A stretch of DNA of 6,722 nucleotides from Chloroflexota bacterium (GTDB lineage: Bacteria; Chloroflexota; Anaerolineae; Caldilineales; Caldilineaceae): contig QEUW01000409.1 in NCBI GenBank assembly GCA_003577005.1, forward strand, positions 1 through 6,722, given 5' to 3'. Below the pieces are notes generated by a model, which was not told where the DNA came from, did not search any database, and saw only the letters and a list, made by a program, of their open reading frames with translations. Below are positions 228-6,722 of the stretch, piece after piece. How positions within the stretch are numbered: position 1 is the stretch's first letter; the number at the start of each line of letters is the position of its first letter. Both the position numbers and the translations under genes were made by a program.

Positions 228-455
228 ATGTGGCGCACGGTGGAAGCGGTAATCGACGAAAACGGAGAGATTCATCTCCTTGAGGCAGTCGCACTCAAGA
301 AAAAAAAACATCGGGCCCTGGTAACAATTTTAGATGACGCTATTGCTGATCGCTTAGAGCGTCCCTTTGGTCTGTCTGCTGGCGAATTTGTAGTACCGGA
401 TGATTTTAACGATCCCTTACCTGAGCATATTTTACGAGACTTCGAAGGCGTATGA
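228..455 (+). CDS. VapB-like antitoxin of a type II toxin-antitoxin pair
   Basis: A 75-residue protein, about the usual size for small antitoxins. The N-terminal half (about residues 4-36: VEAVIDENGEIHLLEAVAL, then RALVTIL) looks like the beta-rich DNA-binding half seen in small antitoxins paired with PIN toxins. The acidic C-terminal half (FVVPDDFNDPLPEHIL, about 54-69) resembles the toxin-wrapping tail of DUF2281-type antitoxins. Expected role, known from such pairs: bind and neutralise the PIN ribonuclease and repress the shared promoter. The ATG is preceded by AAAGGGTGAG (212-221) at suitable spacing. The gene overlaps the toxin gene by 4 nt (ATGA), the typical coupled arrangement. Residues 24-27 (KKKK) are encoded across nine consecutive A, unusual in so short a gene. 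The family assignment is by pattern recognition; the antitoxin role rests mainly on the toxin partner. Confidence 0.72.
   Translation: MWRTVEAVIDENGEIHLLEAVALKKKKHRALVTILDDAIADRLERPFGLSAGEFVVPDDFNDPLPEHILRDFEGV
300..308 (+). repeat. A9 homopolymer inside the antitoxin gene
   Basis: Nine consecutive A encode three Lys codons (residues 25-27, after Lys24 AAG). Loss of one A would give a stop after 31 residues and gain of one would give a stop after 36, so any slippage removes the C-terminal toxin-binding half. Such runs are known slippage sites for polymerases; functional use here is inference. Confidence 0.9.
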
Positions 456-866: not shown

Positions 867-3833
<2,967 letters not shown>

Positions 3834-3858
3834 CCCACTTTGCGACTGAGACATGTAG

Positions 3859-3890
3859 GCCCATCGCTCGCTGAGCGGTGGGCTTTTTTT
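3859..3890 (+). terminator. Rho-independent terminator of secA
   Basis: An 11-bp stem (3859-3869 GCCCATCGCTC with 3873-3883 GAGCGGTGGGC, one G-U wobble) has a 3-nt loop and is followed by seven T (3884-3890). It lies 25 nt after the secA stop and separates secA from the sugar transport operon. Confidence 0.92.
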
Positions 3891-4018: not shown

Positions 4019-4047
4019 TTGACAAGATCCCTGCATAAGGGTATCAT
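4019..4047 (+). promoter_or_regulatory. Strong sigma70-type promoter of the sugar transport operon
   Basis: TTGACA (4019-4024, perfect -35) and TATCAT (4042-4047, five of six to TATAAT) are separated by exactly 17 nt. The start site should lie near 4054, giving a leader of about 115 nt. The spacer contains a short inverted repeat, CCCT-gcata-AGGG (4029-4041), and TTTGT/ACAAA (4053-4057 and 4066-4070) straddles the predicted start; both are weak secondary operator candidates. The leader otherwise holds three TCTGT words (about 4087-4114) and no strong hairpin that I can see. Confidence 0.8.
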
Positions 4048-4170: not shown

Positions 4171-5361
4171 ATGCGCAGTCCGTCATCTTCAGCGGGCGGG
4201 TCGTTCAGCCGCCGTGCGTTTTTGCAGGGTATGATGTGGGCTGGCGGCGCTGTCGCTGGCGTCAATCTGCTGGCTGCATGTGCTGCACCGATAGCGCCGG
4301 CGCCGGCAGCCGCACCGACCGCGGCGCCAGCAACCGATACAGGGCCCGATCCCAAAACGTTCCAACCGTTTCAGGCCAGTGACAAGGTGGGCGAAAAGCC
4401 AAACCTGCCCCGCCGCATTGCCTGGGCCAACACCTCCAATGCCGAATTCTTCCTTGCCATCACCAATGCGATCCAGATGGCAGCCGAAGATCGCGACCTG
4501 GAATTTATCACCGCCATTGCCAACGATGATTCGGCCCGCAATATCGAGCAGATCAACACCTTTCTCCAGCGCGGGATTGCTGCACTCTGTATCCAGCCGC
4601 TCGACGCCAACGCCCAGGCGCCCCTCATGCAAAAGGCAATTGACGACGGGATCGCCGTTCTGTCCCTGGTGACGCCGCCGAGCACCGTGCAGGCGGTGGC
4701 CGATCAATACCAGGTCGGCTACACCCAGGGCGCGGCCGCGGCCAAGTGGATCATGGAAAACCTCGACGGTAAGGCGAAGGTTCACTACTTCAACATCGAC
4801 ACCATCGAAGTGCTGATTGCCCGCCATCAAGGCGTGCTCGACGGGGTGAAGACAGCCGGTGAGGGGGTGGAGATCGTCAGCGACATCAACGCCGGCGCCA
4901 TTACCAACGAGGCTGGCTTCAACACCATGAATACGGTCCTCCAGGCCCACCCGGACATCAACGTGATCCTGGGAGGCGACACGCTCGTGCTCGGCGCCCT
5001 CGCCGCCGTCGAGGCCGCCGGCAAGGCAGGTGAGCAGATCTACATGTCGGGCATCGACGGTGACGCCGAGGCGCTCAAGAAGGTGCGCGAGGGCGGGCCA
5101 TACAAGGCCAGCTTTGCCTTCGCCTACCCAATGATGGGCTATGCCTGGGGCCAGTACGCGGCCGACTGGTTGGACGGCAAAGAGATCCCGCAAGTGATGC
5201 AGTTCAACGCCATCGAACTCAACTCAGCCGAGAGCATCGACGCCTTTGAACAGGATATGGCGAATGTGCGCGAGTCGTGGACCGCGGCCGAGAAGTACTT
5301 TACCAATCTGGGCAGCATCAGCTACGAGACCCGCCAGAACTATGTGCGGGTGTCGGCCTAA
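4171..5361 (+). CDS. Tat-exported sugar-binding lipoprotein of a CUT2-type ABC importer
   Basis: A 396-residue solute-binding protein. The N-terminus carries a twin-arginine motif SRRAFLQG (13-20), a hydrophobic stretch (21-36) and a lipobox LAAC with Cys37, so it should be exported folded through Tat and lipid-anchored outside the membrane. An Ala/Pro/Thr-rich linker (about 38-60) follows. The rest (from about residue 81, RRIAWAN) is a periplasmic-binding-protein-like sugar-binding domain of the RbsB/FrcB type, with the recurring IQPLDANAQ-like region, GGDT (268-271) and the SGIDGD segment (293-298), matching the family's GxDG hinge-side motif. It would deliver a monosaccharide to the permease-ATPase encoded next. 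The sugar cannot be read from sequence; the gene order binding protein, permease, ATPase is like the frcBCA fructose system rather than rbsDACB. It is the first gene after a strong promoter with a palindrome cluster, so it is probably induced by its substrate. Confidence 0.93.
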   Translation: MRSPSSSAGGSFSRRAFLQGMMWAGGAVAGVNLLAACAAPIAPAPAAAPTAAPATDTGPDPKTFQPFQASDKVGEKPNLPRRIAWANTSNAEFFLAITNAIQMAAEDRDLEFITAIANDDSARNIEQINTFLQRGIAALCIQPLDANAQAPLMQKAIDDGIAVLSLVTPPSTVQAVADQYQVGYTQGAAAAKWIMENLDGKAKVHYFNIDTIEVLIARHQGVLDGVKTAGEGVEIVSDINAGAITNEAGFNTMNTVLQAHPDINVILGGDTLVLGALAAVEAAGKAGEQIYMSGIDGDAEALKKVREGGPYKASFAFAYPMMGYAWGQYAADWLDGKEIPQVMQFNAIELNSAESIDAFEQDMANVRESWTAAEKYFTNLGSISYETRQNYVRVSA

Positions 5362-5381: not shown

Positions 5382-5436
5382 AAGAGGAGAGGATGCCAAG
5401 GTAAAACTGCCCGCCACTTTGTCATCCTCTCTTCTT
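5382..5436 (+). other. Large intergenic mRNA hairpin between binding-protein and transporter genes
   Basis: Arm 5382-5395 (AAGAGGAGAGGATG) pairs with 5423-5436 (CATCCTCTCTTCTT) over 14 bp with one G-U wobble. After a C/T mismatch the helix continues for 6 bp (5397-5402 with 5416-5421), leaving a 13-nt loop. No T-run follows, so it is not a standard terminator. In sugar ABC operons such structures after the binding-protein gene commonly protect its mRNA or reduce expression of the membrane components. It starts about 20 nt after the stop codon and ends 24 nt before the permease ATG. Confidence 0.8.
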
Positions 5437-5460: not shown

Positions 5461-6722
5461 ATGTCCGCTCTCTTATGGAGTTCACTGCGGTCATTGATGC
5501 GTTCTTCCAGCCTGGCCTGGGACTGGCGCAACCGGCTCGGCCTGGGGTTGCTCTGTATGGCGTTGATCGCCTTTTTCGGGCTGCGCTTTGACAATTTCTT
5601 TACCATCGACAATGGCTTTGCCACCCTGCTCAACATCTCCTCGATTGCCATTGCCGCCATTGGCAGTGGATATCTGCTGATCTCGGGCAATGTCGATCTC
5701 TCCATCGGCGGCCAGTATGCGCTGATCTCGGTGGTGGTGGCCCAGGTTGCGGTGAGCAGCCAAAATGCGATGCTGAGTGTGCTGGCGGGGCTGCTCTTTG
5801 GTGCGCTGCTGGGTTTCTCCAATGGTGCGCTGGTGCGTGCGCTCAAGATCTCCCCCATCATCGTCACCATTGGCACCTCGGCTGTCTTTCGCGGTATGGC
5901 GTATGTCGTCTCCGGTGGCGTTTCGATCTTTGGCTTTCCACAAAACTTTATCGCCATTGGCCGCACCTACGTTGGCCCCGCGCCCCTCCCCGTCATCATT
6001 GCCGCCATCGTCTTTGTCGTGAGTGGCCTGATCCTTACCAAGACGGTAATCGGGTTGCGCATCTATGCAATTGGCGGCAATGCGGCCGCCGCCCGGCTGA
6101 CCGGCATCAACACCGGTCGCTTTGTCGTCGGTCTGTACGTCTTCAACGGCGTGCTCATGGGGCTGGTGGCAACCCTGGCAACGGCGCGGTTGGGCAGCGG
6201 CACCCCCTCGATCGGGCTCAGCTTTGAGCTCGATGTCCTCACCGCCGTGATCCTCGGTGGGGTCGGTTTTACCGGCGGGTCGGGCCATCCCTTTGGCATC
6301 TTTATTGGCGTCGCCACCATCGCCGTGCTCAACACCGGTCTCATCTTTGCCGGGCTACAAGATTGGTACCAGCAGATCGCCCGCGGCCTGACATTGCTGC
6401 TTGCCCTGGCCGCCGACCAGGTGGCCGCGGCCCGGCGCGAGCGAGCCGTGAGCGTCGAACCCCAGATCGACCGGCGCGAGGCGCTCCTGGCTGCCGCCAC
6501 CCGTGATGGCCAATTGCCACCCGCCAGCGCGCAGCTCTCTGCCGCCGCTAAAGGGGAGATGGTCTTCCATTGTGCCGGGCTGGTCAAGAGTTATGGTCCC
6601 GTCACTGCCGCCTACGATGTGAGTTTTTCCATCGCTGCCGGCGAAGTCGTCTGTCTCGTCGGCGATAACGGTGCGGGCAAAAGTACAGTGATCAAGATGA
6701 TCAGCGGCGCCATCCAACCCGA
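5461..6722 (+). CDS. Fused sugar ABC permease and ATPase (RbsC/FrcC-RbsA/FrcA type), 3' truncated by window
   Basis: One uninterrupted frame of 420 complete codons runs to the window edge. Residues about 25-320 are a CUT2-type permease (BPD_transp_2 family), with many hydrophobic helices, SGNVDLSIGG (75-84), KISPIIVTIGTSAVFRG (129-145), AIGGNAAAARLTGI (203-216) and the ILGGVGFTGGSGHPFG segment. After the last helix, an Arg/Ala/Glu/Gln-rich linker (about 321-366) leads in frame into an ABC ATPase domain: MVFHCAGLVKSYG with A-loop Tyr378, then CLVGDNGAGKST Walker A (398-409; Lys407) and VIKMISGAIQP. Q-loop, signature, Walker B and any second ATPase domain lie beyond the window. The GDNGAGKST form and the permease-then-ATPase order recall FrcC and FrcA. 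Together the parts would form the membrane pore and motor for the sugar caught by the upstream lipoprotein. The chosen ATG follows an in-frame TAG at 5452 and has only a weak Shine-Dalgarno (AGAG, 5453-5456), suggesting lower expression than the binding protein. Fusion versus assembly indel is weighed in the findings. Confidence 0.88.
   Translation, partial: MSALLWSSLRSLMRSSSLAWDWRNRLGLGLLCMALIAFFGLRFDNFFTIDNGFATLLNISSIAIAAIGSGYLLISGNVDLSIGGQYALISVVVAQVAVSSQNAMLSVLAGLLFGALLGFSNGALVRALKISPIIVTIGTSAVFRGMAYVVSGGVSIFGFPQNFIAIGRTYVGPAPLPVIIAAIVFVVSGLILTKTVIGLRIYAIGGNAAAARLTGINTGRFVVGLYVFNGVLMGLVATLATARLGSGTPSIGLSFELDVLTAVILGGVGFTGGSGHPFGIFIGVATIAVLNTGLIFAGLQDWYQQIARGLTLLLALAADQVAAARRERAVSVEPQIDRREALLAAATRDGQLPPASAQLSAAAKGEMVFHCAGLVKSYGPVTAAYDVSFSIAAGEVVCLVGDNGAGKSTVIKMISGAIQP

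What the first reader, a model, noticed from the sequence alone, without database searches (positions are those of the whole stretch)
5461..6722. Sugar permease and ABC ATPase encoded as a single polypeptide
Seen directly: from ATG 5461 no stop occurs in frame through an RbsC/FrcC-like permease, a linker of about 45 residues and an ATPase domain with an intact Walker A. CUT2 sugar importers normally encode these as separate proteins; permease-ATPase fusions are known to me mainly from LivM-LivG (branched-chain amino acid) importers. A fusion places the two nucleotide-binding domains on the two permease copies of a homodimer, giving fixed 1:1 stoichiometry as in exporter-type half transporters, but in an importer. 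The linker keeps GC-rich codon third positions, which favours real coding over a sequencing error.
Basis: partly seen in the sequence, partly recalled or inferred. Interest (0 to 1): 0.72.

Follow-up and report, generated by a model that had tools for sequence, protein, structure and literature searches.

The report
Sugar importer with fused permease and ATPase
In this bacterium the membrane channel and the ATP-burning motor of a probable sugar importer, normally two separate proteins, are one continuous protein; related bacteria share the fusion, which would pair up into an importer with two identical motors.

Summary
From ATG 5461 one frame runs without a stop to the window end through a PF02653 permease, a 37-residue linker and the start of an ABC ATPase domain, Walker A at 6661-6687. 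It is not an assembly error: 117 of 120 listed database proteins (the window's own included) carry both domains. 110 of 110 of full length keep six catalytic residues, and three relatives in named genomes are fused with ONE ATPase domain. The window's own gene end was not seen. Both halves were largely inherited together. The ATPase groups with single-domain CUT2 ATPases, not with the tandem RbsA type, and lacks RbsA's degenerate motifs. The permease model has the BtuC (type II importer) fold. Best reading: a binding-protein-dependent monosaccharide or polyol importer whose core is a homodimer of one polypeptide with two consensus ATP sites. Dimer, transport and substrate are inferred. It is rare in the phylum of L001 (Chloroflexi; 2 of 400 genomes) and also found in actinomycetes. 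It is a new variant of a known kind; the searches named below did not show it described.

The parts
4019..4047 (+). promoter-like site TTGACA-17-TATCAT upstream of the operon
   Evidence: 11 of 12 consensus matches; 1 found where shuffles give a mean of 1.0, so weak evidence
4171..5361 (+). substrate-binding protein, Peripla_BP_4 (RbsB-like), with twin-arginine-like motif and lipobox (LAAC)
   Evidence: PF13407 3.1e-32; frame is open from TTG 4093, start ATG 4171 chosen by the signal sequence; motif names recalled
5382..5436 (+). strong hairpin between the binding-protein gene and the fusion gene
   Evidence: dG -27.5, z -4.9, 0 of 200 shuffles as stable; hairpins at the same place in L002 (z -7.5) and L001 (z -11.1) with other sequences
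5461..6722 (+). fused permease-ATPase gene, 5' part (420 codons; runs past the window end; start may be 5497)
5524..6447 (+). permease domain, PF02653, predicted type II (BtuC-like) importer fold
6448..6558 (+). linker, 37 residues, poorly conserved but in frame
6559..6722 (+). start of the single ABC ATPase domain; Walker A at 6661-6687

Best explanation
A genuine, inherited fusion of a CUT2-type permease with a single-domain CUT2-type ATPase. Inferred working: a lipid-anchored binding protein (encoded just upstream) captures a monosaccharide or polyol and docks on a homodimer of the fusion protein. Each chain gives one BtuC-fold half of the pore and one ATPase domain; the two identical ATPase domains close on two ATP at two consensus sites and drive import. 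Shown here: the continuous frame, conservation of both domains and of catalytic residues in relatives, largely common inheritance of the two halves, kinship with single-domain ATPases, adjacency of a binding-protein gene, absence of another permease or ATPase in the stretches held around three relatives. Inferred: homodimer, transport direction, substrate, ATP stoichiometry. The fusion probably arose by loss of the stop between a permease gene and a directly following ATPase gene, an order that split relatives still have.
For: 117 of 120 listed database proteins, the window's own included, have both Pfam domains; 110 of 120 are 590-665 aa, and in 110 of 110 of these Walker A Lys, Q-loop Gln, signature Ser, Walker B Asp and Glu and H-loop His are kept (two end Walker A in SS instead of ST). 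Fused members lie on contigs of 6.4-8.1 Mb in named actinomycetes (P0062, P0065, P0075), which speaks against assembly error. Linker dN/dS 0.26-0.28 against L001 and L002. Permease and ATPase trees of the 110 proteins share 54 of 107 splits (at most 2 in 200 relabellings); of splits supported at 0.9 or more, 42 of 54 and 37 of 51 recur in the other tree, 3 pairs conflict. ATPase tree of 84 rows: fused rows in a 100/100 clade (with five standalone rows) within the single-domain group (100/97); tandem N-halves (96/86) and C-halves (100/98) apart. Binding-protein gene upstream in the window and in 3 of 3 fused loci; an SDR gene downstream in 3 of 3. No second permease or ATPase match in L001 (13.3 kb), L002 (8.7 kb), L003 (13.2 kb). 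Five of 400 genomes of the phylum have permease and ATPase genes adjacent in one frame with one or two stops inside. Model of P0002: pLDDT 86.8, pTM 0.84.
Against: The window holds only the first 420 residues; the rest is read from relatives. Strict monophyly of the 30 fused rows is rejected (p-AU 0.0007) because five standalone ATPase rows (P0139, P0153, P0158, P0161, P0162) nest among them: secondary splits, or pieces of frameshifted fused genes; not resolved. One close relative looks split or broken: P0081 (352 aa permease) and P0131 (244 aa ATPase) have contigs of the same length, 65,471. Several near permease-only rows end in what look like frameshifts. The linker sequence is hardly conserved. 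No expression, dimer or transport data; no dimer was modelled.
Confidence: 0.88

Rival explanations
1. Two separate genes joined by a sequencing or assembly error (missing stop or indel).
For: The longest contig listed for this protein is 6,722 bases, the window's length (P0001), and no reads were available. Split, adjacent, same-frame gene pairs exist, and one close relative looks split (P0081 with P0131).
Against: The same fusion in 117 of 120 listed proteins, some on contigs of megabases; linker codons without a gap against L001 and L002; the 11 split loci examined are only 27-35% identical in the permease.
Confidence: 0.03
2. The fusion is made as one chain but works as a heteromer, sharing its ATPase with, or needing, another permease or an RbsA-like ATPase elsewhere in the genome.
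For: The three genomes hold many other matches to the permease and ATPase halves.
Against: No partner gene in the three fused loci; catalytic residues kept in 110 of 110, so no helper site is needed; the two halves are largely coinherited.
Confidence: 0.08
3. The chain is cut after translation in the weakly conserved linker and works as an ordinary two-subunit importer.
For: The linker is the least conserved inner stretch and the least confidently modelled.
Against: Linker length stays within 51-84 residues (measured from DQ to SYG, median 60) in 110 of 110. No cutting has been seen; protease sites were not searched for.
Confidence: 0.05
4. Not an importer of sugars but of another small molecule such as a nucleoside or vitamin.
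For: CUT2-like permeases also serve other solutes (recalled); the substrate was not determined, and no curated family model was passed at its cut-off.
Against: Best curated matches are sugar permeases (AraH 5e-54, 183.6 bits against a cut-off of 378) and the binding protein is RbsB-like (59.7 bits, cut-off 337); SDR genes nearest to gluconate 5-dehydrogenase follow in relatives (below cut-off).
Confidence: 0.2

Closest known systems
FrcBCA-type CUT2 importers (S. meliloti fructose; that FrcA has a single ATPase domain is recalled)
   Same: Gene order frcC (permease) then frcA (ABC protein) as in the fusion (PMC10433430, passages). The fused ATPase groups with standalone single-domain ATPases of about 255 aa, about 50% identical; 34 of 34 such rows in the tree keep Walker A, an SGG signature and Walker B DEP.
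   Different: Two genes there, one here; the permeases of 11 split loci are 27-35% identical to the fused one. FrcA itself was not fetched.
RbsABC / AraFGH / MglBAC (classical CUT2)
   Same: PF02653 permease, homodimeric, with a sugar-binding protein (PMC11212667, passages).
   Different: Their ATPase is a tandem of two unlike halves: N half with deviant signature, C half with Walker A Lys to Arg, Q-loop Gln to Glu and H-loop His to Ser (5 of 5 E. coli proteins; one degenerate site also noted for B. subtilis RbsA and NupO in PMC11466899, passages). Here one domain with these motifs intact, fused to the permease.
BtuCD and other type II importers
   Different: Separate ATPase subunit in BtuCD; sequence identity 11%.
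Half-transporters: ABC exporters, and fused permease-ATPase siderophore importers such as IrtAB and YbtPQ
   Same: One membrane domain and one ATPase domain per chain; fused permease-ATPase iron-siderophore systems are in print (PMC3672683 and PMC7550540, passages).
   Different: Exporter-type membrane fold there (recalled), BtuC-like fold here; this one has a binding-protein gene beside it.
LivM-LivG fusions
   Different: The fused ATPase lies far from E. coli LivG and LivF.

Membership tests
CUT2 carbohydrate importer family | PF02653-type permease related to RbsC/AraH | tested here: met
   PF02653 above cut-off; best curated matches AraH and RbsC, below their cut-offs; tree
CUT2 carbohydrate importer family | Peripla_BP_4 sugar-binding protein gene in the operon | tested here: met
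   window 4171-5361 and 3 of 3 relatives
CUT2 carbohydrate importer family | ATPase with two fused ATP-binding domains (as stated for CUT2 in PMC11212667, passages) | tested here: not met
   one ATPase domain: proteins of 590-665 aa, 110 of 120 listed; filed only as a variant beside the single-domain branch
CUT2 carbohydrate importer family | imports a monosaccharide | not testable with these tools
   needs uptake or binding assays
Single-domain (FrcA-like) CUT2 ATPases | ATPase groups with them rather than with tandem halves or Liv | tested here: met
   100/97 in the tree of 84 rows; FrcA itself not in the tree; the tool warns of long branches among the tandem C-halves and the outgroup
Single-domain (FrcA-like) CUT2 ATPases | ATPase is a separate protein | tested here: not met
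   fused
Type II ABC importers | BtuC-like membrane fold | tested here: met
ABC half-transporter | works as homodimer | not testable with these tools
   no dimer prediction offered

The most novel reading that the evidence does not exclude
A stable lineage of one-gene type II sugar importers: a homodimer with two equal, consensus ATP sites tethered to BtuC-fold membrane domains, in a family whose textbook ATPase is a fused, half-degenerate tandem. The tether could be active (ATPase domain docked on the partner's membrane domain, as in swapped exporters), and the asymmetry of RbsA would be dispensable for CUT2 transport.
Probability: 0.25. Interest if true: 0.6.

Novelty: new variant of a known kind. 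Interest (0 to 1): 0.42.

Why it matters
By sequence no solved structure matches E. coli RbsC or a profile of 40 fused and split permeases, and the role of the degenerate site in RbsA and NupO is called unclear in print (PMC11466899, passages). A single chain that carries the permease and a consensus ATPase, present in cultured actinomycetes, is a simple system to purify and to ask whether that asymmetry is needed. For annotation, permease-only or ATPase-only naming of such genes is half wrong.

Tried and rejected
Assembly error: rejected for the family. Descent from tandem RbsA by simple fusion: not supported by the ATPase tree; but the tool warns that the long C-half branches meet the outgroup, so which came first, tandem or single domain, is open. 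A first ATPase tree used wrong-strand translations of L010, L012, L013 and L018 and was replaced. Single origin of the fusion: likely but not shown (AU test p 0.0007 against strict monophyly; five nested standalone ATPase rows). The fold search with the full-length model returned ATPase-domain or exporter-type matches, hence the separate permease model. The window's own genome is not held. Rfam: no match in the window at gathering scores. Plasmid records: at least 5,000 matched P0002, all best places under 60% identity; the one I opened is split. Actinomycete neighbourhoods of fused genes could not be read (no locus). Literature in the open library: nine answered searches, six of them aimed at the fusion and three at neighbours; listings show at most 20 papers each. 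No title or abstract start listed, and no passage I opened (nine papers), describes a CUT2 permease-ATPase fusion. The hits on 'fused permease' that I opened concern siderophore systems (PMC7550540, PMC3672683) and a lantibiotic exporter (PMC13068155). Subscription papers and TCDB were not searched. Some database names already list both functions for these proteins.

Full report
WHAT IS THERE. The frame from ATG 5461 stays open to the end of the window: 420 codons, no stop. It holds a PF02653 permease (residues 55-316) and the first 35 residues of an ABC_tran domain (386-420), both above Pfam's cut-offs. Walker A is intact at nt 6661-6687. GC at third codon positions is 0.76 in the linker and 0.77 in the permease. 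An open frame of this length is not by itself surprising in such DNA (p about 0.09 for the 91 codons after the permease); homology carries the case. An in-frame TAG lies just upstream of ATG 5461; the database protein P0001 starts at M13, nt 5497, so the start is not settled.

IS THE FUSION REAL. Of 924 database proteins matched (only the 7,995 candidates sharing most words were scored), 120 were listed; 117 of these 120 carry both PF02653 and PF00005 (P0081, P0090 and P0118 do not), and one of the 117, P0001, is the window's own. 110 of 120 are 590-665 aa long; the other ten, shorter, were left out of the motif counts. In 110 of 110 the Walker A lysine, Q-loop glutamine, signature serine, Walker B aspartate and glutamate and H-loop histidine are present; 108 read GDNGAGKST and two (P0108, P0113) GDNGAGKSS. 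P0002 is 93% identical to the window protein and 624 aa long, with one ATPase domain. Named sources include Caldilineaceae and other Chloroflexota, and the actinomycetes Phytohabitans, Micromonospora, Paractinoplanes, Acrocarpospora, Solwaraspora, Sphaerisporangium, Asanoa, Dactylosporangium, Streptomyces and Streptosporangium, three entries of these on contigs of 6.4 to 8.1 Mb. Of six loci found in named genomes, three (L001, L002, L003) are full-length relatives, and 3 of 3 are fused in complete ORFs of 620, 621 and 625 aa; the other three match only the C-terminal part of the query weakly. Against L001 and L002 all 47 codons of residues 323-369 align without a gap; third positions change most often (32 of 74 and 23 of 46 changes), dN/dS is 0.26 (dS 2.6, saturated) and 0.28; against L003 45 of 47 align and dS could not be computed.

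HOW THE TWO HALVES EVOLVED. FastTree trees of the two halves of the 110 proteins share 54 of 107 splits (at most 2 under 200 relabellings). Of well supported splits, 42 of 54 permease and 37 of 51 ATPase splits recur in the other tree, and 3 pairs conflict: the halves mostly travel together. A tree of 84 ATPase domains was built from samples: 30 fused (29 of the 110, plus L003), 34 standalone single-domain rows (24 of 72 taken by step, four more chosen, six loci), nine tandem N and nine tandem C halves, and LivG and LivF. The fused rows form a 100/100 clade together with five standalone rows, inside a 100/97 group that holds only single-domain and fused rows; tandem N-halves (96/86), C-halves (100/98) and Liv lie outside. 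Holding the 30 fused rows alone together is rejected (p-AU 0.0007), so the five standalone rows are either secondary splits or pieces of damaged fused genes; I could not read their DNA. In the permease tree (79 rows) the 29 fused permeases and ten near permease rows form a 100/100 clade away from RbsC, AraH, MglC, AlsC, YtfT and YjfF. P0081 and P0131, on contigs of equal length, look like one split or broken member.

HOW COMMON. With P0002 as query (the tool scored only a few best candidates in most genomes): 2 of 400 genomes of the phylum of G001, the genome of L001, hold a full-length unbroken match (G001, G003), and 5 of 400 hold adjacent permease and ATPase genes aligned in one frame with one or two stops inside (E at most 1e-70). 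Family of G002: 2 of 46 fused and 1 split (E at most 1e-75). Class of G002: 1 of 249 (E at most 1e-100). Class of G003: 1 of 29 (E at most 1e-100). L003, the locus of G003, is titled Proteobacteria, but G003 was drawn in the phylum of G001. Of 11 split loci examined, 9 have permease then ATPase and 2 the reverse; in 7 of 11 both are in one frame, but those seven were found because they matched a fused query across the join, so this share is inflated. A lost stop is an easy route to the fusion (inference).

SURROUNDINGS. Upstream lie a promoter-like site at 4019-4047 and a Peripla_BP_4 binding protein, start likely ATG 4171, with SRRAFLQG and LLAAC. A strong hairpin (5382-5436) separates it from the fusion gene, and equally placed hairpins with other sequences occur in L002 and L001; perhaps it lets the binding protein outnumber the transporter (inference). 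An SDR gene follows in L001, L002 (cut by the contig end) and L003 (3 of 3), nearest to gluconate 5-dehydrogenase but below that model's cut-off; a polyol or sugar acid is a guess.

VERDICT. I found it described in none of the searches named, but it is a variant of known CUT2 importers, conserved and already half visible in database names.

Noticed in passing
window 5382-5436; L002 5912-5990; L001 5886-5994: Very stable hairpins between the binding-protein gene and the fusion gene, same place, different sequences (z -4.9, -7.5, -11.1). L003 has a gap of only 27 bases there.
   Followed up: partly
window 228-455 and 452-838: A 75-aa ORF overlapping a PIN-domain (VapC-like) gene by 4 bases; looks like a toxin-antitoxin pair. 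The 75-aa ORF has no Pfam match.
   Followed up: partly
window 867-3833; L002 1404-4397: SecA (988 aa) directly upstream of the sugar operon in the window and in L002.
   Followed up: no
window 3857-3885: Terminator-like stem with T run after SecA, so the sugar operon is probably its own transcription unit.
   Followed up: no
L003: Record titled Proteobacteria whose genome G003 falls in the phylum of a Chloroflexi record; the title is probably outdated or wrong.
   Followed up: no
L026 6040-7799: Streptomyces plasmid with a split single-domain ATPase (252 aa) and permease (334 aa) overlapping by 4 bases, in the reverse order.
   Followed up: partly
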